From a virus: a DNA stretch of 22,372 nucleotides. The notes under the pieces were generated by a model that was not told the origin of the DNA, made no database searches, and worked only from the letters and a program-made list of their open reading frames with translations. Shown one piece after another: positions 2,885 to 14,018 of the stretch (within the stretch, counting starts at the first letter, position 1; every line of letters starts with the position of its first letter). A program made the position numbers and the translations under genes. The stretch is from the IMG/VR virus record IMGVR_UViG_3300007734_000480, positions 1 to 22,372 of that record, one strand, 5' to 3'.

Positions 2885-3847
2885 ATGGCATATCCAACAC
2901 CAGCGGTAACCACAACCACCGCAGCAACCTTCATCCCAGAAATCTGGTCTGATGAAATCGTAGCCGCTTACAAGAAAAACCTTGTATTGGCTAACATCGT
3001 AATGAAGATGAACTTCAAGGGCAAGAAGGGTGACACAGTTCACATTCCCGCCCCTACCCGTGGTTCAGCTTCAGCAAAAGCGGCTTCTACAGCCGTTACA
3101 TTGATTGCCGATACTGAGACAGAAGTTCAAGTCTTGATTAACAAGCACTATGAATATTCACGTTTCATTGAGGACATCGTTGAAGCCCAAGCATTGAACA
3201 GCTTGCGTCAGTTCTATACTGCCGATGCTGGTTATGCGCTTGCCAAGCAAGTTGATACCGACTTGATCCAATTGGGTCGTGCTTTCAATGGTGCTACTGT
3301 CGGTACTAACGACTACGCAACAAGCAATACATCCACCAAAGCCTATATCGGTTCTGATGGTACTACTGCTTACAACAGCACATCTTCCAATGCAGCCGCA
3401 TTGACTGATGCCGCTATTCGCAGAACTATTCAGCGTTTGGATGACAATGACACTCCTATGGATGGTCGTTTCTTCATCATTCCTCCTTCAAGCCGTAATA
3501 CGTTGATGGGTCTTGCCCGTTACACAGAACAGGCTTTTGTGGGTAATGGCGATGCAATCCGTAATGGTGAAATCGGTCAACTGTATGGTATCCCCGTGTT
3601 TACATCTAGCAATGCTGATTCTGGCGCAGGTAACTCTGGTGCTGATCGTATTTGCTTGATGGGTCACAAGGACTCTATGGTTCTAGTTGAGCAAGTTGGT
3701 GTTCGTTCACAGACTCAGTACAAACAAGAGTACCTTGCTACTCTGTTTACATCTGACACTCTGTATGGTGTGAAAGCCATGCGTACAGCCGCTACAACTG
3801 GTGCAGCTTTGTCTTCTAGCGCATTTGCGTTAGCAGTTCCAGCCTAA
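2885..3847 (+). CDS. Major capsid protein
   Basis: The main shell subunit, 320 residues. It begins MAYPTPAVTTTTAATFIPEI and contains an N-terminal WSDEIVAAYKKNLVLANIV helix, a GKKGDTVHIPAP segment, and TLYGVKAMRTA near the end, a pattern I associate with coat proteins of the P22/N4-like HK97-fold groups of environmental podoviruses. The N-terminus reads directly into the folded region without a long acidic scaffold-like extension, consistent with the separate scaffold gene upstream. Preceded by GGAG at 2873-2876 and followed at once by a strong intrinsic terminator, as is common for the most highly expressed head gene. The fold assignment is by recall of related sequences, not by structure comparison. 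Confidence 0.9.
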   Translation: MAYPTPAVTTTTAATFIPEIWSDEIVAAYKKNLVLANIVMKMNFKGKKGDTVHIPAPTRGSASAKAASTAVTLIADTETEVQVLINKHYEYSRFIEDIVEAQALNSLRQFYTADAGYALAKQVDTDLIQLGRAFNGATVGTNDYATSNTSTKAYIGSDGTTAYNSTSSNAAALTDAAIRRTIQRLDDNDTPMDGRFFIIPPSSRNTLMGLARYTEQAFVGNGDAIRNGEIGQLYGIPVFTSSNADSGAGNSGADRICLMGHKDSMVLVEQVGVRSQTQYKQEYLATLFTSDTLYGVKAMRTAATTGAALSSSAFALAVPA

Positions 3848-5390: not shown

Positions 5391-5533
5391 AACAAGGTCT
5401 TTACGCTAACATTCATGCCAAACAAGAACGCATCAAAGCGGGTTCTAAGGAAAAGATGCGTAAGGTTGGCTCTAAAGGTGCTCCTACTGAGGCGGCATTT
5501 AAGGCTGCGGCTAAGACCGCAAAGAAGAAATGA
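5387..5533 (+). CDS. 48-residue basic protein of a recurring phage family
   Basis: A 48-residue protein beginning MKQGLYANIHAKQERIKAGS and continuing KMRKVGSKGAPT, ending KTAKKK. It has 12 Lys and 2 Arg against 3 Glu. The YANIHAKxxRI-x-AGS-x-EKMR-K core recurs next to DUF6496 genes in environmental phages as I recall it, but no function is assigned. Start overlaps the preceding stop (ATGA), and its own stop overlaps the start of the nuclease-like gene, also as ATGA. Confidence 0.72.
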   Translation: MKQGLYANIHAKQERIKAGSKEKMRKVGSKGAPTEAAFKAAAKTAKKK

Positions 5534-6147
5534 TCCCTGAATCATTAGACAAAACAACTGTTAATCAGTTACTGCTGTCTCATGGGACATGGAAGCATCT
5601 TTTCTACCGATGCTATTCAGAAGTAAGCTCTGATTACAAAAATTATGGCGGTCGTGGAATTGATGTGCATCTATCGTGGCATGGAGAAGATGGTTTTTAT
5701 CAATTTATCCAAGATGTTGGACTTAGGCCATCAAAAGATTACAGTCTTGACAGAATTGATGTAAACAAGGGTTATTCTCCAGAAAATGTGAAATGGTCAA
5801 CTAGCATTGAGCAAGCCAATAATCGAAGGAATAGCAAGAGATACCTGTTTGAAGGCGAGAATCTTACGTTGGCTGAGATTGCTAGAAAAACAGGAATTGG
5901 ATACCAAAGAATCTGGAAAGCAACTAAGATTTATGGCGATCCATCAGAACATACAAAAATTGATCCAGATCGTGGTAAACGTATGTATCAAGGTGAATTA
6001 CGCTCAACAACTGAGATTGCTAAAATGGTCAATATGAAGCCAGAAACTCTTATGCAAAGATTAAGAAATGGCTTAGATTTTGATTTAGCTATTGCATTAC
6101 CACCTCAGCCTGGTGTACACTTCACAGGAAGATCATTATGGTCTTAA
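5530..6147 (+). CDS. Free-standing homing-endonuclease-like protein with tandem HTH modules
   Basis: A 205-residue protein. Residues 20-100 contain YKNYGGRGIDVHLSW (38-50), SLDRIDVNKGYSPENVKWS (72-90) and EQANNRR (94-100). The YGGRGI...F..F..D-G-x-R-P...LDRID-N-x-x-YSPENVRW...Q-x-N-R order is typical of an HNH-related phage endonuclease family. Residues 106-135 (GENLTLAEIARKTGIGYQRI) and 154-182 (GELRSTTEIAKMVNMKPETL) are two helix-turn-helix modules of the NUMOD type, likely the DNA-recognition part. Free-standing homing enzymes cut an unoccupied allele so that repair copies the gene. It splits a cassette of small basic genes, yet starts with an ATGA overlap and runs 10 bases into the next gene, so the insertion is well adapted. 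Confidence 0.82.
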   Translation: MIPESLDKTTVNQLLLSHGTWKHLFYRCYSEVSSDYKNYGGRGIDVHLSWHGEDGFYQFIQDVGLRPSKDYSLDRIDVNKGYSPENVKWSTSIEQANNRRNSKRYLFEGENLTLAEIARKTGIGYQRIWKATKIYGDPSEHTKIDPDRGKRMYQGELRSTTEIAKMVNMKPETLMQRLRNGLDFDLAIALPPQPGVHFTGRSLWS

Positions 6148-6416
6148 AAAAATACCAGAATCCAAAAGGTGGGTTGAATGAGGAAGGTCGAGAGTTCTAC
6201 AAAAGAACTGAAGGACTGAACTTAAAAGCACCTTTAAAAACGGGTAATTCAGGTCGACGATCTAGTTTTTTAGCACGAATGGGCAATATGCCTGGCGCTG
6301 AGATGAAAGATGGGAAGCCTACCCGACTCCTTCTATCTCTTAGAGCTTGGGGCGCATCGTCCAAGGAAGACGCTAAAGCAAAGGCTAAAGCGATCTCTAA
6401 GAGGAATAAGAAGTGA
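6138..6416 (+). CDS. DUF6321-like small basic protein
   Basis: A 92-residue protein with NPKGGLNEEGREFYKRTEG at the start, SGRRSSFLARMGNMPGAEM in the middle and PTRLLLSLRAWGASSKEDAK near the end. This KGGLN-x-x-GR-x-x-Y...NLK-P...RR-x-SF-x-ARM-x-MPG...LR-x-W order matches the DUF6321 family as I recall it, short proteins of podovirus-like genomes. It has 15 Lys and 8 Arg against 8 acidic residues. The ATG lies within the last codons of the nuclease-like gene (10-base overlap) and its stop overlaps the next start as GTGA. Function unknown; a virion or packaging role is possible. Confidence 0.78.
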   Translation: MVLKKYQNPKGGLNEEGREFYKRTEGLNLKAPLKTGNSGRRSSFLARMGNMPGAEMKDGKPTRLLLSLRAWGASSKEDAKAKAKAISKRNKK

Positions 6417-6748
6417 GACCAGTATCCGTTGGAATTAGCCCTACAGCCGCTACGCTGACTACTGTTTACACAGTACCAACGGGATACTATGCCAAATTTA
6501 CTGTCATGTATATCCACAATACTGGTGGATCGACAAAGCACATTACAGTTGCTTGGAATGATGCAAGTGCATCAACTTCATACGATATTCTTACCCAATA
6601 TAACTTCACATCCAAACAATACTTACAGTTTGATGGAAGTGCTTATATCGTTTTAGAAGAAGGCGATAAAATTCAAATAACAACTGAAGCTGGAAGCACT
6701 TTCAGTTTTCTAGCAACATTTGAGGTTGTAGGAGCGCAAAGAACATGA
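6413..6748 (+). CDS. Small beta-rich structural protein
   Basis: A 111-residue protein starting at GTG 6413, which overlaps the preceding stop as GTGA. Sequence is made of short strands: TTVYTVPTGYYAKFTVMYIH, then KHITVAW, YIVLEEGDKIQITTEAGS and FLATFEVVG. This is a jelly-roll-like or immunoglobulin-like beta sandwich pattern with no Cys. Proteins of this kind near the head-tail junction of podoviruses are often minor structural components. The stop overlaps the adaptor start (ATGA). Precise role not known. Confidence 0.68.
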   Translation: MRPVSVGISPTAATLTTVYTVPTGYYAKFTVMYIHNTGGSTKHITVAWNDASASTSYDILTQYNFTSKQYLQFDGSAYIVLEEGDKIQITTEAGSTFSFLATFEVVGAQRT

Positions 6749-7392
6749 CCTACTTAGAACTTGTTAACGATGTCCTTGTGCGTTTGCGTGAGAGTACTGT
6801 TTCTACTGTTGGTGAAACAACCTATTCCTCTTTGATTGGCAAGTTTGTCAATGATGCCAAGCGTCAAATTGAGGATGCTTATACTTGGAATTGCTTATCT
6901 CAGACAGTTACTGTCACAACAACTTCTGGCACAAGTTCATATTCTTTGACTGGTGTTGGTCAAAAGTTTCGTGTAATTGACGCAATTAACACGACCAGTT
7001 TGGTTAGTTTGACAGATATTCCTTTTGTGGACATGAATCGCAAGTTGAACTTTGGTTCTCCTGCTCAATCTATTCCTACTGAATACTGTTTTAATGGCGT
7101 GGATGGTAGTGGTGATACAAAAGTAAGCCTATTTCCAGTCCCAAATGGCGTATTTACTTTGTTGTTTGATGTGGTTGTACCTCAAGCAGCACTATCTTCC
7201 GACTCAACATCTGTGAAAGTTTTGGACTATTTGGTAGCCCAAAGTGCCTATGCTCGTGCTTTGATTGAGCGTGGTGAGGATGGTGGTACATCTAGTTCAG
7301 AGGCTTATGCTTTGTTCAGGGGTATGTTATCTGATGCGATTGCAACAGAGAGTACTCGCTATCCTGAAGAATCTAACTTTGAGGCAGTCTAA
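6745..7392 (+). CDS. Head-to-tail adaptor (gp11/tail tubular A-like)
   Basis: A 215-residue protein beginning MTYLELVNDVLVRLRES, the recurrent opening of adaptor proteins that dock on the portal and carry the short tail. A helical part (KFVNDAKRQIEDAYTWN, about 33-49) is followed by strands (TVTVTTTSGTSSYSL), then a beta-rich centre and a C-terminal helical part. This matches the helical bundle plus beta sandwich build of T7 gp11-type proteins. It lies between the small head genes and the nozzle gene, and overlaps the latter by one base (TAATG). The family call rests on the N-terminal motif and gene order. Confidence 0.78.
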   Translation: MTYLELVNDVLVRLRESTVSTVGETTYSSLIGKFVNDAKRQIEDAYTWNCLSQTVTVTTTSGTSSYSLTGVGQKFRVIDAINTTSLVSLTDIPFVDMNRKLNFGSPAQSIPTEYCFNGVDGSGDTKVSLFPVPNGVFTLLFDVVVPQAALSSDSTSVKVLDYLVAQSAYARALIERGEDGGTSSSEAYALFRGMLSDAIATESTRYPEESNFEAV

Positions 7393-8936
7393 TGGCATCT
7401 CAGTTACAAAGTTATAGTCTTTCAGCACCAGGTTTTTATGGCCTGAATACTGAAGATTCACCCTTGGATTTGGGTGCTGGCTTTGCTTTGGTTGCCACTA
7501 ACTGCATCTTAGATCAGTATGGTCGTATTGGTGCTAGAAAAGGTTGGTCAAGAGTAAATTCTTCCTCTGGAAACCTTGGTGCTAACGATGTTGGTGTGAT
7601 CCATGAGTTGGTTCAGACTGATGGCACATTGACTGTGTTGTTTGCTGGCAACAATAAACTATTTAAACTTGGCGCATCTAATGCGGTGACTGAGTTGACC
7701 TATGGTGGTGGCGGTACTGCTCCAACCATTACTGCTAGTAACTGGCATTGTGCATCTTTGAATGGAATTGCTTATTTCTTTCAAACTGGTCACGATCCAT
7801 TGATTTACGACCCTGCAGTAAGTACTACTACTTATCGCAGAGTGTCAGAGAAGTCTGGTTATGTTGCTACTGTTCCACAAGCAAACATCTGTATCTCTGC
7901 TTTTGGTCGTTTATGGGTGGCTAATACTTCTACTGATAAAACAACAATTAGCTTCTCTGACCTGATTGCTGGTCATGTTTGGTCTGGTGGCACTTCAGGA
8001 TATTTAGATATTTCTCGTGTGTGGCCTAATGGCGCAGATGAAATCATGGGTTTGGCTGCACATAATGACTTCTTGTTTATCTTTGGCAAGAAGCAGATTC
8101 TTGTTTATGCAAACGCTTCCACGCCAGCTTCTATTGTTCTAAGCGACACAGTAGGAAATATTGGTTGTGTGGCTAGAGACACCATACAAAGCATTGGTTC
8201 TGATGTTGTTTTCTTGTCAGACTCAGGTGTTCGCTCATTGATGAGGACTATTCAAGAGAAGTCTGCTCCTTTGCGTGACTTGTCAAAGAATGTTCGTTTT
8301 GATCTGGCATCCTCTTTAGCGGGTGAAACTCTTGCTAATTTGAAGTCTGTTTACTCAGAGAAAGAGGCTTTTTACTTACTGATTTTGCCTGCCACGCTTC
8401 AAGTGTATTGTTTTGACACCAAACAATCCTTGCAAGATGGCGCTTCTCGTGTGACCAAATGGGATTCAATTTCTCCAACTTGTGCAAAATCCTTGAGAAA
8501 TGGTGATTTGTACATTGGTAAGAATGGCTATATTGGTAAATATGGGACTTATCTTGATGACACATCAAGTTATCGTTTCTTGTACTACACAAACAATGCT
8601 GACTTGGGAAACCCTAACCAGATTTCTATTTTGAAGTCTATTACTGCTGTTGTAATTGGCGGTTCAAACCAGTATCTCACGATTAAGTGGGGGTTTGACT
8701 ATTCGGGCGCCTACCAGTCAGAGAACATTTTTATACCTACACAAGTAAGTTATGAATATGGAACTGCTGAGTATGCTGTTGCAGACTTTACAAGTGGCAT
8801 TCCAATCAAGGCGTTGACAAGCAATGCTTCAAGTGCAGGTAAGATTGTGCAAACAGGTTATGAGGCAACCATAAACGGAACTCAATTGTCTATACAGAAG
8901 ATTGAAATTCAGGCCAAAGAAGGCAAGATAGGATAA
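7392..8936 (+). CDS. Tail nozzle protein (beta-propeller type)
   Basis: A 514-residue protein with SAPGFYGLNTEDSPLDLGAG at residues 10-29 and then CILDQYGRIGARKGW, the usual opening of podovirus nozzle or stabilisation proteins. The rest alternates short strands with turns, with recurring G-x-Y-F/W and D-x-V-F-L-S-D-S-G pieces such as SDVVFLSDSGVRSL near residue 275, which is what a multi-bladed propeller gives. The nozzle continues the tail tube below the adaptor and gates DNA exit. The stop lies three bases before the fibre gene, ahead of which AGGA (8932-8935) serves as ribosome binding site. Functional call by family resemblance and position. Confidence 0.78.
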   Translation: MASQLQSYSLSAPGFYGLNTEDSPLDLGAGFALVATNCILDQYGRIGARKGWSRVNSSSGNLGANDVGVIHELVQTDGTLTVLFAGNNKLFKLGASNAVTELTYGGGGTAPTITASNWHCASLNGIAYFFQTGHDPLIYDPAVSTTTYRRVSEKSGYVATVPQANICISAFGRLWVANTSTDKTTISFSDLIAGHVWSGGTSGYLDISRVWPNGADEIMGLAAHNDFLFIFGKKQILVYANASTPASIVLSDTVGNIGCVARDTIQSIGSDVVFLSDSGVRSLMRTIQEKSAPLRDLSKNVRFDLASSLAGETLANLKSVYSEKEAFYLLILPATLQVYCFDTKQSLQDGASRVTKWDSISPTCAKSLRNGDLYIGKNGYIGKYGTYLDDTSSYRFLYYTNNADLGNPNQISILKSITAVVIGGSNQYLTIKWGFDYSGAYQSENIFIPTQVSYEYGTAEYAVADFTSGIPIKALTSNASSAGKIVQTGYEATINGTQLSIQKIEIQAKEGKIG

Positions 8937-8939
8937 ACC

Positions 8940-10952
8940 ATGTCAAATTACACAAAAAGTACCAACTTTGCATCTAAAGACAATCTGTCACCAGGCAATC
9001 CTTTAAAGATTGTCAAGGGTACTGAAATTGATACAGAGTTTAACAATATTGCCACCGCAGTAGCTACCAAGACAGACAATGCTTCTGCAACCATTACTGG
9101 TGGAACAATCAATGGGGCAACCATTGGTGCTTCTACTGCCGCAGCAGGCACTTTTACTAACTTAACTGTTAACACAGCCGCTACGATTGCTTCTGCCGCT
9201 ATTAGCGCAGGCACGATCAATGGCGCAGTTATTGGTGGTTCTTCTGCTGCTGCCATTACTGGTACTAATGTTACTGCCACAACAGGATTTAGTGGCCCAT
9301 TGACAGGGGCAGTTACAGGTAATGTTACAGGTAATGTGACTGGTAACTTGACTGGCAATGTCACAGGAAATGTAACTGGTAATGTTACAGGCAATGTAAC
9401 TGCTGCTTCTGGCACTTCTACATTCAATAATGTGACTATCTCTGGCTCGCTTGACATGGATTCTGGTACATCGGCAACGATTACTGGTCTAGCGAGTCCT
9501 ACAAACGATTCTGATGCGGCTACAAAGGGTTATGTAGATGCACTAGCCCAAGGTATTGATGCGAAGGCTTCTGTGGTTGTAGCTACAACTGCAAACATTA
9601 CTCTGTCTGGCACACAAACAATTGATGGAGTAGCGGTTTCTGTTGGTGACCGAGTATTGGTTAAAGACCAGTCTACTGCTTCTGGCAATGGCATTTATGT
9701 AGTTGCTTCTAGCACTTGGACTCGTGCAACTGATGCTGATTCTTGGACTGAGTTGACTGCGGCCTTTACCTTTGTTGAAAAGGGTACGACAAACGCTGAC
9801 TCAGGTTGGATTTGTACCATTGATGCAGGTGGGACATTGGGAAGCACATCTGTTACTTGGGCACAGTTCTCTGGTGCGGGACAGATTACGGCAGGCGCAG
9901 GTTTAACAAAGACTGGCAATACTCTTGATGTAGGTACTGCTTCTAGTTCACGCATTGTTGTCAATTCGGACAACATTGATTTGGCGACTTCTGGTATTAC
10001 TGCAGGAACATACCAATCTGTAACTTTTGATGCTTATGGTCGTGCCACAGCAGGAACTAACCCAACGACTATTGCTGGCTACAACATTACAAATGCCTAC
10101 ACAAAGACTGAGATTGACTCTATCTTTGGTTCTACAACATCTGCGGCAACTAGTGCATCCAATGCCGCCACATCTGCTTCTAATGCGGCAACAAGCGCTT
10201 CTAATGCCTCTACAAGCGAAACAAATGCGGCTTCTAGCGCAACGGCAGCAGCGGCTAGTTACGACTCTTTTGATGACAGATATTTAGGAAGCAAGACTTC
10301 TGCGCCTTCTGTGGACAATGATGGAAATGCTCTGTTGACAGGTGCTTTGTACTGGAATTCAACTGTTAGCCAACTGTATGTTTGGTCTGGAAGTGCTTGG
10401 ACTCAGGCGGCATTTACTTCAGCAGGATTCTTAACTGCAAGCAATAACTTGTCTGATCTGGCAAATGCTTCTACTGCAAGAACTAATTTGGGTGTTGCAA
10501 TTGGCTCAAATGTTCAGGCTTATAGTGCTACTTTGACTACTTGGTCTACAACTACTGCTCCTAGCGGTACTGTTGTTGGTACTACAGATACTCAAACGCT
10601 AACAAATAAGACCCTGACAAACCCGACTGTCACCAATTATGTTGAAACGCCTTACACGGCAAACTCAAGTACAGCCATCACATTGGCTTTGACAAATGGA
10701 ACAGTCCAAATTATTACTTTGACAGGCAACGCAACCATTACGATGCCAACAGCCACGGCTGGTAAATCATTTATTTTGCTTTTAAAGCAAGATGCAACAG
10801 GATCACGCACAGTTACTTGGACAACAGTTAAATGGCCAGCAGGGACTGCACCAACAATCACCAGCACAGCATCTAAGCAAGATATTTTCAGTTTCTTTGC
10901 TGATGGTACAAACTGGTACGGCACGACTGTCGGTCAGAACTACACACCATAA
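8940..10952 (+). CDS. Tail fibre protein with VTGN repeats
   Basis: A 670-residue fibre. Residues 1-40 hold an N-terminal piece (DNLSPGNPLKIVKGTEIDTE) seen in fibre and structural proteins of related phages. Residues 48-110 are Gly/Ala/Thr-rich beta-helix-like repeats with INGATIG and INGAVIG. Residues 125-153 carry seven tandem VTGN units. Residues 204-313 form a known phage fibre domain with TLSGTQTIDGVAVSVGDRVL and GNGIYVVASSTWTRATDAD. Residues 399-440 are a SASNAAT-type coiled stretch like that of lambda-type side fibres, followed by DDRYLGSKTSAPSVDNDGNA and, at the end, a beta-rich tip. Such fibres bind the host surface. It is nearly free of Cys, with a single one around residue 292. Confidence 0.85.
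   Translation: MSNYTKSTNFASKDNLSPGNPLKIVKGTEIDTEFNNIATAVATKTDNASATITGGTINGATIGASTAAAGTFTNLTVNTAATIASAAISAGTINGAVIGGSSAAAITGTNVTATTGFSGPLTGAVTGNVTGNVTGNLTGNVTGNVTGNVTGNVTAASGTSTFNNVTISGSLDMDSGTSATITGLASPTNDSDAATKGYVDALAQGIDAKASVVVATTANITLSGTQTIDGVAVSVGDRVLVKDQSTASGNGIYVVASSTWTRATDADSWTELTAAFTFVEKGTTNADSGWICTIDAGGTLGSTSVTWAQFSGAGQITAGAGLTKTGNTLDVGTASSSRIVVNSDNIDLATSGITAGTYQSVTFDAYGRATAGTNPTTIAGYNITNAYTKTEIDSIFGSTTSAATSASNAATSASNAATSASNASTSETNAASSATAAAASYDSFDDRYLGSKTSAPSVDNDGNALLTGALYWNSTVSQLYVWSGSAWTQAAFTSAGFLTASNNLSDLANASTARTNLGVAIGSNVQAYSATLTTWSTTTAPSGTVVGTTDTQTLTNKTLTNPTVTNYVETPYTANSSTAITLALTNGTVQIITLTGNATITMPTATAGKSFILLLKQDATGSRTVTWTTVKWPAGTAPTITSTASKQDIFSFFADGTNWYGTTVGQNYTP
9312..9401 (+). 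repeat. 12-bp tandem repeats encoding VTGN
   Basis: Seven tandem 12-base units (one reads LTGN) plus half a unit, encoding VTGN repeats at residues 125-154 of the fibre. Units differ mainly at third codon positions (GTT/GTG/GTC/GTA, ACA/ACT, GGT/GGC/GGA), so the protein repeat is kept while the DNA has drifted. Confidence 0.95.
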
Positions 10953-10961
10953 GGACTGACT

Positions 10962-12926
10962 ATGTTTGCATCAGGTAAAACAGCGACAGTCGTAAGTAAT
11001 GCAATTAGTTACATTGAGGATGTGTTTAGCACTTATCTTTACACAGGCACAGGCACATCTTTAACAATTACCAATGGCATTGACTTGTCCACTAAGGGTG
11101 GATTGGTTTGGAATAAACTAAGAGCAGGTGCTGGGTTAAGTGCAAACCATAAGTTATATGACACAACTCGTGGTGTTAATAAAGAACTTTATACAAACCT
11201 TACAAGTGCGCAAGGAACTAAAACAGACGCATTAAATTCATTTAATACAAATGGGTTTACTCTTGGAGCACAAGACATTAACGAAACTGGTGGCACATAC
11301 GCCTCATGGACATTCCGCAAGCAACCAAAGTTTTTTGACATTGTGACTTATACTGGTGATGGAATTGCTGGTAAAACAATTAGTCATAATTTAGGTTCTA
11401 CCCCTGCATTTATTATTGTTAAAGGTGTTGACGTTGCTAGAGCTTGGTTTTGTTATCATTCTTCTCTTGGCCCAACAAAATATATTCGACTTGATGATAC
11501 TGGTGCGGCAACAACAAATTCTACTATTTGGAATGACACTTCGCCAACAAGCACACAATTTACTGTTGGTGGTTCAACGGGAACTAATTTTTCTGGGTAT
11601 CAATTTGTCGCTTACCTATTTGCTCATGACGCAGGAGGTTTTGGTCTGACTGGTACAGACAATGTGATTTCTTGTGGCTCTTTTACTGATAGCACAACAG
11701 TAAATCTTGGATACGAGCCTCAATGGGTTTTAATAAAACCATCATCGTCTATTGGCAATTGGAATATTATTGATAATTTGCGTCAATGGGTTGGTACAGA
11801 TGCTGCTACTAGTGACGCATTGGGTGGTAAGTTTCTTGCGCCAAATTTATCAAGCGCAGAATCAACTACTTCATATAACACAAATATTACGCCAACTGGA
11901 TTTCGCGTTGATGGAACAAGTGGAACATATATCTATGTAGCCATTCGCAGAGGGCCGATGAAAGTTCCTACTGTTGGTACAACTGTGTACAACGGAGTAA
12001 CTTGGACAGGAGACAATGCTGCAAGAACTATTACAGGAATAGGTTTCCCATTAGATATGTGTTTTACACACATAAGAAATGTTAGTGGAACATCTGCACA
12101 AAGTTTGTTTTTTGATAGGGTGCGAGGAAATGGAAGTACAACATCTGCAAAAAGACTTAGAGCAACTGCAGCAGCTTCAGAAATAGATTACACATCTGTT
12201 GGAACTTTTGATTTAATGGATGGTTTTAGAATTCTTGATGGTGATGGTCTTATAAATGATGCAGGGTTGCCGTCAACTTATGTAGGATATTTCTTTAAAA
12301 GAGCACCATCTGTATTTGACCAAATATGTTTTACAGGAAATGGAACTGCAGGGAGAACGCTAAATCATAATTTAGGAGTAGCCCCAGAAATAATGATTGT
12401 AAAAGAAAGAAATTACTCAGGCGGTCGTCCTTGGGTTTTTTATCATTCTGGATTAGGTGCAACTAAATTCTTGTACATGAATGAAACAACCACGCCAACA
12501 ACAAGTTCAGCGGCTTGGAACGACACAGCACCTACATCGTCTGTGTTTACGTTGGGTTCAAATTCCATCGTTAACTTTTCTGGCACAAACTACGTTGCTT
12601 ATTTGTTTGCCACTTGTGCAGGGGTTAGCAAGGTAGGAAGCTACACAGGAAATGGAAGCACACAAACCATTAACTGTGGCTTTACAAGTGGTGCTAGGTT
12701 TGTATTAATTAAGCGTACTGACTCAACTGGGGACTGGTATGTATATGACACAGCTCGTGGCATGACAACAGTAACTGACCCATATTTATTGCTTAACAGT
12801 ACAGCCGCAGAATCTGCAAGTCTTGGTTCTGTTACAACATCATCAACAGGTTTTGACTTAAATGCAGGAATCTTGGCGGCAATCAACACTAATGGCGCAA
12901 GCTACATCTTTTTTGCGGTGGCGTAA
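10962..12926 (+). CDS. Receptor-binding-type fibre protein with DUF7483-like modules
   Basis: A 654-residue beta-rich protein built from recurring modules. Module A (residues 48-125) has GLVWNKLR and GGTYASWTFRKQPKFFD. Module B1 (126-223) has YTGDGIAGKTISHNLG, STIWNDTSPTSTQFTVG and YQFVAYLFA. Module C1 (236-330) has LGYEPQWVLIKPSSSIGNW and YIYVAIRR. Module D (346-450) follows, then B2 (452-551, TGNGTAGRTLNHNLGVAPE, AAWNDTAPTSSVFTLG, YVAYLFA) and C2 (558-654). I recognise B and C as the DUF7483 type found in tail proteins of aquatic phages. It follows the first fibre by nine bases with AAGGA before the ATG, so both fibres are likely co-expressed. Host recognition is inferred. Confidence 0.8.
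   Translation: MFASGKTATVVSNAISYIEDVFSTYLYTGTGTSLTITNGIDLSTKGGLVWNKLRAGAGLSANHKLYDTTRGVNKELYTNLTSAQGTKTDALNSFNTNGFTLGAQDINETGGTYASWTFRKQPKFFDIVTYTGDGIAGKTISHNLGSTPAFIIVKGVDVARAWFCYHSSLGPTKYIRLDDTGAATTNSTIWNDTSPTSTQFTVGGSTGTNFSGYQFVAYLFAHDAGGFGLTGTDNVISCGSFTDSTTVNLGYEPQWVLIKPSSSIGNWNIIDNLRQWVGTDAATSDALGGKFLAPNLSSAESTTSYNTNITPTGFRVDGTSGTYIYVAIRRGPMKVPTVGTTVYNGVTWTGDNAARTITGIGFPLDMCFTHIRNVSGTSAQSLFFDRVRGNGSTTSAKRLRATAAASEIDYTSVGTFDLMDGFRILDGDGLINDAGLPSTYVGYFFKRAPSVFDQICFTGNGTAGRTLNHNLGVAPEIMIVKERNYSGGRPWVFYHSGLGATKFLYMNETTTPTTSSAAWNDTAPTSSVFTLGSNSIVNFSGTNYVAYLFATCAGVSKVGSYTGNGSTQTINCGFTSGARFVLIKRTDSTGDWYVYDTARGMTTVTDPYLLLNSTAAESASLGSVTTSSTGFDLNAGILAAINTNGASYIFFAVA
11337..11951 (+). repeat. Protein-level repeat, first copy (modules B1 and C1)
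   Basis: Encodes residues 126-330 of the second fibre. It shares with the second copy the marks TGxGxAGxTxxHNLG, YHSxLGxTK, WNDTxPTSxxFTxG, FSGxxxVAYLFA, then VLIKxxxxxGxW and AESxxxxxxxITPTGF-like ends. The similarity is at protein level only. Confidence 0.8.
12315..12923 (+). repeat. Protein-level repeat, second copy (modules B2 and C2)
   Basis: Encodes residues 452-654 of the second fibre and repeats modules B and C after the intervening module D. The order is A-B-C-D-B-C. The second C lacks the IRR end and closes the protein with FFAVA. Confidence 0.8.
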
Positions 12927-12964: not shown

Positions 12965-13519
12965 ATGTTTACCGAGGAAGAAAAGACAAAGATTTTTAAA
13001 AGTTACAGGATGCAAAAGTCAAACGCCAGAACTAGAAAGATTCCATTTTTGTTGACTTTTGAGCAATGGTTAACAATTTGGAATGAATCTGGAAAACTTG
13101 CACAACGTGGTCGTGGTGCTAACAAATTTTGTATGTGTCGAGTAAATGATACAGGCGCATACGAAGTAGGTAATGTTTTTATTGGAACTGGTCGTGAAAA
13201 TGTAAGAGCTGGAAATCTTGGCAAAGTTATGTCTCAAGAAATTCGTCAAAAAATTTCTAAGGCTAATATTGGGAAACCACATGAATGGTCAAAAGGAGAA
13301 AAAAATCCTATGCACAGACCAGACGTTAAAGCTAAGATGAGTGAAAAAACTGGTGGAGCAAACCATTACAAAGCAATTGGAGTTACAACGCCTGAAGGGT
13401 TTTACCCAACAGCGAAATTAGCGGCAATTGCATTGGGTATGAAAAAATCAACTGTTGAATGGAGAGCCAAACATAAAAAATATGGCTTTACATACGGCAA
13501 TAATTTAGCAATTGCTTGA
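12965..13519 (+). CDS. Free-standing homing-endonuclease-like protein with NUMOD3-type region
   Basis: A 184-residue basic protein. Residues 15-80 carry SNARTRKIPFLLTFEQW (19-35), CMCRVNDTGAYEVGNVFIG (56-74) and ENV, a nuclease-like core of the A-x-x-R-x-IPF-x-LT-x-E-x-W...C-x-x-R-x-x-D-x-G-x-Y-x-x-GN-x type seen in phage intervening genes. Residues 89-130 (SQEIRQKISKANIGKPH, NPMHRPDVKAKMSEKTGG) fit the NUMOD3 nuclease-associated repeat, and residues 137-172 (AIGVTTPEGFYPTAKLAAIA, KKSTVEWRAKH) a NUMOD1-type helix-turn-helix. It has its own promoter and AAGGAG ribosome binding site, so it may be expressed apart from the tail operon. It lies between the second fibre and the fibre chaperone. Whether it cuts DNA is not known from sequence alone; no complete HNH triad is evident. 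Confidence 0.8.
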   Translation: MFTEEEKTKIFKSYRMQKSNARTRKIPFLLTFEQWLTIWNESGKLAQRGRGANKFCMCRVNDTGAYEVGNVFIGTGRENVRAGNLGKVMSQEIRQKISKANIGKPHEWSKGEKNPMHRPDVKAKMSEKTGGANHYKAIGVTTPEGFYPTAKLAAIALGMKKSTVEWRAKHKKYGFTYGNNLAIA

Positions 13520-13529
13520 GGAAATTAAA

Positions 13530-14018
13530 ATGCAAGTACGAATCAGAGAAACAGGCGCAGTCATGTACGAGAGTGAATTTCGTGCATTGCATCCAAACAC
13601 ATCAATGCCACAACAACTATCAGAGGCACTATTAAATGAGTTTGGTGCTGATGTAGTCTTTGAAGGCGCACAAGCGTCAGGCGGTACTGTTTACCAATAC
13701 TCTCAAGCCGCTGGTGTCGAGCAGATTGATGGTAAGTGGTACACAAAGTATGTATTAGGCCCTACCTTTATTGATACTGTTGATGATGGTGTAACTACTA
13801 CAGCACTACAGCACGAAACTGCTTACAAGGAACAGAAAGACGCTGAACAGGCTAAGAATGTTCGTGCTACTCGTGATGCTAAATTAGCAGAAACTGACTG
13901 GCGATTTCGTAGTGATATGACTCCATCACAAGCATGGAAAGACTACTGCCAAGCATTAAGAGATGTGCCTACTCAGTCTGGTTTCCCTTGGACTATTACT
14001 TGGCCTGATGCGCCTTAA
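13530..14018 (+). CDS. Tail fibre assembly chaperone-like protein
   Basis: A 162-residue protein. The C-terminal part, RATRDAKLAETDWRFRSDMT, then AWKDYCQALRDVPTQSGFPW and WPDAP, matches the phage tail assembly chaperone (Phage_tail_APC type) motif R-D-x-L-x-E-x-DW...W-x-x-Y-R-x-x-L-R-D-I-P...GFPW-x-x-x-WP. The middle part holds a short beta domain. I chose the ATG at 13530 (GAGGAA at 13518-13523); an in-frame TTG at 13512 lies inside the upstream nuclease-like gene. Such chaperones help fold and attach fibres and normally sit just after the fibre gene; here the nuclease-like gene has come between. Its stop overlaps an unrelated ATG, but the next gene starts at 14031. Confidence 0.85.
   Translation: MQVRIRETGAVMYESEFRALHPNTSMPQQLSEALLNEFGADVVFEGAQASGGTVYQYSQAAGVEQIDGKWYTKYVLGPTFIDTVDDGVTTTALQHETAYKEQKDAEQAKNVRATRDAKLAETDWRFRSDMTPSQAWKDYCQALRDVPTQSGFPWTITWPDAP

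What the first reader, a model, noticed from the sequence alone, without database searches (positions are those of the whole stretch)
12010..12425. Codon-usage island inside the second fibre gene suggests a swapped domain
Within residues about 347-486 of the fibre, all ten Arg codons up to residue 483 are AGA (8), AGG (1) or CGA (1), with no CGT or CGC. By contrast, five of nine Arg codons in residues 1-330 are CGT or CGC. Ile shows the same: ATA is used 6 of 9 times in the island, 1 of 20 in residues 1-346 and 0 of 6 after residue 487. The island covers module D and the start of module B2, so it looks like a piece recently acquired by recombination from a phage with different codon habits, with a boundary near the homologous HNLG motif. 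This is where host range may be changing.
Basis: seen in the sequence. Interest (0 to 1): 0.72.

Follow-up and report, generated by a model that had tools for sequence, protein, structure and literature searches.

The report
Swapped bead in phage tail fibre
One of six bead-like domains in this aquatic phage's tail-fibre protein was brought in from another phage lineage, shown by its foreign codon habits and by two otherwise different phages carrying nearly the same bead, which is a known way for phages to remodel the part that probably touches the host.

Summary
The fibre is two DUF7483 copies, predicted as six ~100-residue beta-sandwich beads (A-F). Bead D (residues ~327-447, window ~11940-12299) is 89-91% identical in DNA to two IMG/VR phages (L002, L209). 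Every other bead of those fibres is no closer to the window than many other relatives. Trees of bead D and bead F conflict (AU p = 0.0002). The codon island runs past bead D to residue 486, a tract those two phages lack, so the window kept a longer tract or was patched twice. Two corrections: the edges are not at HNLG but at the C|D linker and at residue ~486, and 'recent' is relative, since the nearest copies differ by 9-11% and the donor was not found. Fibres aligned here also show mildly raised AGR/ATA in this region, so part of the signal is positional. Beyond the finding, the linkers between beads keep their synonymous codons across 142 divergent fibres, and identity breakpoints are enriched there, suggesting they act as homologous-recombination anchors. 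Domain mosaicism of phage receptor-binding proteins is known; the host-range effect is inference only.

The parts
10962..12926 (+). second fibre gene, 654 aa, two DUF7483 (PF24299) copies = six beta-sandwich beads A-F
   Evidence: Pfam E 1.8e-104, 2 stretches; PHROG virion structural / tail fiber; AlphaFold2 pLDDT 86.4, pTM 0.84
11025..11318 (+). bead A (residues 22-119)
   Evidence: strand pattern of model; closest relative only 0.69 nt
11334..11621 (+). bead B (125-220)
11667..11948 (+). bead C (236-329)
11940..12299 (+). exchanged DNA segment carrying bead D (residues ~327-446): 88-91% identical to L002 and L209
   Evidence: HMM breakpoints at residue 327 (L209) or 342 (L002) and 447
11988..12296 (+). 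bead D proper (343-445)
   Evidence: tree support 100 for window+L002+L209
11949..12419 (+). codon-usage island (residues 330-486; AGA/ATA/GGA, low NNC)
12300..12419 (+). right part of the island (447-486), start of bead E: D-like codon use, not shared with L002/L209; departs from the conserved linker codons
12315..12608 (+). bead E (452-549); from residue ~481 nearest to L211 (nt identity steps from 0.56-0.62 to 0.71-0.76)
12627..12920 (+). bead F (556-653), nearest L190/L162 (0.86/0.85 nt)
   Evidence: switch at residues 549-568
11301..11351 (+). linker A|B (..WTFRKQPKFFDIVTY), codon-conserved
   Evidence: synonymous excess 0.38
11634..11678 (+). linker B|C (GGFGLTGTDNVISCG), codon-conserved
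   Evidence: synonymous excess 0.52
11931..11987 (+). linker C|D (IYVAIRRGPMKVPT..), codon-conserved; left edge of the swapped bead
   Evidence: synonymous excess 0.47; breakpoints
12294..12338 (+). linker D|E (FKRAPS.FD..CFTG); right identity edge of the swapped bead
   Evidence: synonymous excess 0.34 in relatives; the window itself departs from consensus
12594..12647 (+). linker E|F (VAYLFATCAGVSKVGSYT)
   Evidence: synonymous excess 0.24

Best explanation
The island marks a horizontally exchanged piece of the fibre gene. Shown here: bead D (domain 4 of 6) is shared at ~90% DNA identity with two phages whose other fibre beads are ordinary relatives, and its codon style comes with it. Shown here: the codon island continues to residue ~486, where bead E switches to an L211-like sequence. 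Inferred: bead D plus the start of bead E entered together, or through two overlapping exchanges, from a pool with AGA/ATA/GGA-rich, A+T-rich codon habits. Inferred: exchange happens by homologous recombination (phage recombinases in co-infected cells) between the short linker stretches that join the beads, which stay conserved at DNA level and so let one bead be replaced in frame. Inferred: the beads form the distal, probably carbohydrate- or receptor-contacting part of the fibre, so bead replacement changes adsorption.
For: Per-bead nearest neighbours differ. Sharp identity steps against L002/L209 at 327/342 and 447. Tree conflict between D and F. Synonymous codon identity between window and L209/L002 is 0.85/0.79 in D but 0.40-0.54 in C, E and F. 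Codon island and the 447-486 extension. Backbone relatives L138/L139/L122/L125 are 81-83% identical up to 10418 or 10530, carry unrelated bead D (0.38-0.49 nt), and backbone matches resume downstream of the fibre. Linkers have excess synonymous conservation 0.39 vs 0.13 elsewhere (p 1.6e-14 over columns), and identity breakpoints fall in linkers 40% vs 19% expected. A high-confidence model places the linkers between beads.
Against: The donor was not found; only two carriers were found in IMG/VR and neither is a parent (9-11% DNA divergence; L002's other genes use few AGA, 9 of 81 Arg). The window's own D|E linker departs from the common linker codons, so its right junction was not made through that consensus. 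For beads A-C the AU test did not reject window+L002 (p 0.73, poorly resolved tree). Part of the AGR/ATA excess is positional. Linker and breakpoint p-values ignore shared ancestry, and conserved linkers by themselves draw apparent breakpoints towards their edges.
Confidence: 0.88

Rival explanations
1. The codon island is normal within-gene variation or a position effect: this bead favours AGA/ATA in all such fibres.
For: Aligned fibres pooled show AGR 0.50 vs 0.39 and ATA 0.27 vs 0.19 in this region; the all-codon changepoint test is only about p 0.01 within the gene.
Against: The window ranks 1st of 152, about 3.4 sd above the mean difference; most deviant of 213 windows; independent sequence evidence for exchange.
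Confidence: 0.06
2. Two separate exchanges: bead D from the L209/L002 pool, and residues 447-486 from a different source, the codon similarity being coincidence of two A+T-rich donors.
For: L209/L002 identity ends at 447 while codon style ends at 486; no held sequence covers both.
Against: 447-486 is the most D-like of 562 stretches in the contig, a coincidence if unrelated; one longer tract is simpler.
Confidence: 0.3
3. Metagenome assembly chimera joining two phages inside the fibre gene.
For: The record is an IMG/VR-type virus record, reads not available.
Against: Reading frame intact across 654 aa; edges lie on predicted domain borders; the same bead sits in foreign contexts in two other contigs; exact matches across the edges to any held locus are at most 29 nt; the same mosaic pattern is seen in many other fibres.
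Confidence: 0.03
4. Linker codons are conserved for an RNA- or DNA-level function (site-specific recombination, RNA structure, translation pausing between domains), not because they are recombination anchors.
For: Synonymous conservation is strong and local; pausing at domain borders is an established idea in general (own knowledge).
Against: Breakpoints concentrate at the linkers; by eye no common motif among the linker consensus sequences, not tested formally.
Confidence: 0.25

Closest known systems
Domain mosaicism of phage receptor-binding proteins (PMC10684548, Nat Commun 2023)
   Same: A fragment at high identity is shared by otherwise dissimilar tail fibres, in frame, between distinct phages
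   Different: Here the unit is a single internal bead in a six-bead tandem fibre, and the junctions sit at codon-conserved linkers; the paper's tail-fibre example has a shared N-terminus and swapped C-terminal tips
T-even adhesin exchange between conserved motifs (own knowledge: Tetart, Desplats and Krisch 1998; not read here)
   Same: Short conserved stretches separating variable segments are proposed as sites of homologous exchange that swap specificity
   Different: Other proteins with other motifs; unrelated sequence family
Boundary sequences between genes of lambdoid phages (own knowledge; not read here)
   Same: Short conserved DNA at module borders proposed to guide exchange
   Different: Between genes, not within one gene
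DUF7483 fibres of Roseobacter, Pelagibacter and Synechococcus phages
   Same: Same kind of protein; best isolates 38-44% identical over 97% of the length
   Different: None of the phage records holds a bead D better than 44% identical

Membership tests
DUF7483 (PF24299) phage fibre | Pfam profile above gathering score over most of its length | tested here: met
   349.8 bits vs cut-off 27, two stretches
Domain mosaicism | fragment shared at high identity between otherwise dissimilar proteins | tested here: met
   bead D 0.89-0.91 nt; other beads rank 28-145 of ~150
Domain mosaicism | phylogenetic conflict between fragments | tested here: met
   D clade support 100; F rejects it, AU p 0.00022; A-C test inconclusive (p 0.73)
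Foreign-codon horizontal acquisition | donor with matching codon habits identified | tested here: inconclusive
   two carriers found, neither matches as donor; phage records negative at DNA level
Motif-guided homologous exchange | DNA-conserved stretches at exchange borders | tested here: met
   synonymous excess 0.39 vs 0.13; breakpoints in linkers 40% vs 19%; relatedness not fully controlled, and the window's own right junction lies off the consensus linker
Motif-guided homologous exchange | exchange changes receptor specificity | not testable with these tools
   host unknown; needs adsorption assays

The most novel reading that the evidence does not exclude
DUF7483 fibres are a bead-exchange system: inter-bead linkers are held at DNA level (including synonymous sites) across highly divergent aquatic phages because they serve as recombination anchors, so that single beads can be replaced in frame across phage lineages with unrelated backbones.
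Probability: 0.45. Interest if true: 0.68.

Novelty: new member of a known kind. Interest (0 to 1): 0.48.

Why it matters
It shows that a codon-usage signal seen by eye can pinpoint a real domain swap in a phage adhesion gene, and it gives domain borders and linker sequences with which the exchange mechanism in a widespread but unstudied aquatic fibre family (no paper in the held library names DUF7483) can be tested.

Tried and rejected
No tRNA gene in the window that would explain AGA/ATA use. No phage record near the window at DNA level and none with bead D. Bacterial genomes: one distant match, 37%. A degenerate DNA pattern for bead D found only the same two contigs. PDB fold search: no match at E <= 0.001 and best VIA-align Z 5.7 (galectin-like and T4 gp9-like sandwiches), too weak to name a fold family. 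One related-loci run failed from a frame error. AU test for beads A-C was uninformative.

Full report
Observation. The fibre gene 10962-12926 encodes 654 residues. Against whole-contig usage, the 140-codon window starting at residue 341 is the most deviant of 213 windows (z 6.4), just ahead of the capsid gene (5.9), which deviates in the opposite way with CGT and ATC. When codon use is learned from residues 342-446 only, residues 447-486 score higher than any of 562 other 40-codon stretches of the contig, and the score turns at residue 486. So the island is real and its right edge is near window 12419. It is not wholly free of position effects: 152 aligned fibres pooled show a mild rise of AGR and ATA in the same region, but the window is first of 152.

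What it lies in. The protein holds two copies of DUF7483. A confident AlphaFold2 model (pLDDT 86.4, pTM 0.84) has strand blocks that divide into six beads of about 100 residues: A 22-119, B 125-220, C 236-329, D 343-445, E 452-549, F 556-653 (bead limits are my reading of the strands). The island is bead D plus the start of bead E.

Independent evidence of exchange. Bead D is 0.91 and 0.89 identical in DNA to contigs L209 and L002; the median relative is 0.43 and all others are far lower. Those two fibres are unremarkable in every other bead: L002 ranks 32, 70, 50, 28 and 77 for A, B, C, E and F, and L209 ranks 125, 142 and 145 for C, E and F. A two-state identity model puts the switches at residue 327 (L209) or 342 (L002) on the left and 447 on the right. 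A tree of bead D joins the three with support 100, and a tree of bead F rejects that clade (AU p 0.00022); for beads A-C the test did not decide. Most of the unusual codons are shared by all three copies, so the style arrived with the bead. Other beads have still other nearest neighbours: E from about residue 481 is nearest L211, and F is nearest L190 and L162 (0.86, 0.85), with a switch at 549-568. The phages closest in backbone (L138, L139, L122, L125; 81-83% DNA over 6267-10530) have unrelated bead D (0.38-0.49) and only short matches inside the fibre; similarity resumes downstream of the fibre, from 13196-13641 depending on the relative.

HNLG (residues 469-472) is not an edge. The identity edge is the D|E linker (447) and the codon edge is residue 486. 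The tract 447-486 keeps the D-like codon style and in the linker (446-459) differs from the common codons at almost every position, while L002 and L209 largely follow the common codons there. Either the window holds a longer piece of the donor, or it was patched twice; I favour the longer piece but cannot exclude two exchanges. 'Recent' is relative: the nearest copies differ by 9-11% of bases. The donor is unknown; L002's other genes have GC3 0.53 and few AGA codons, so L002 looks like another recipient.

Mechanism. Across 142 fibres under 75% identical, linker codons are conserved at synonymous sites (mean excess 0.39 vs 0.13 in other conserved columns, p 1.6e-14), whereas similarly conserved blocks inside beads are not (0.09-0.15). 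Of 124 clustered identity breakpoints, 40% fall in linkers that make up 19% of the scanned length. Both results ignore shared ancestry, and conserved linkers pull apparent breakpoints towards themselves, so this is suggestive rather than proven. The simplest mechanism is homologous recombination between linkers in co-infected cells. That bead replacement alters host range is inference from the place of such proteins in phages, not tested.

Relation to what is known. Domain mosaicism of receptor-binding proteins is well documented (PMC10684548), and motif-guided swapping is known from T-even adhesins (own knowledge). The case is a clear new member; the codon-conserved linkers between tandem beads may be a new variant. 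No held paper names DUF7483.

Noticed in passing
window 12965-13519: Homing-endonuclease-like gene (NUMOD3 just under cut-off; PHROG homing and HNH endonuclease families) inserted exactly between the fibre and its assembly gene; about 15 of 136 relatives have an insert at this place, while 120 have the two genes abutting. It might drive co-conversion of the neighbouring fibre.
   Followed up: partly
window 5530-6147: A second HNH-like reading frame by eye (SLDRID..GYSPENVKW motif); weak relatives in a few loci; Pfam gives only a sub-threshold sigma-70 region 4 match.
   Followed up: no
window 10418-10952: Identity with the backbone relatives stops inside the first fibre gene (at 10418 or 10530), so the tip of that fibre may also be replaced.
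   Followed up: partly
L183 3462-7541 and L131 1077 onward: Some relatives carry two DUF7483 fibre genes in tandem.
   Followed up: no
window 2885-3847: Capsid gene deviates in codon use towards CGT and ATC, as expected for high expression.
   Followed up: no
L002 3698-5755 and L209 3-1466: These two fibres share a second near-identical block (aligned to window residues ~178-240) besides bead D, and differ elsewhere.
   Followed up: no
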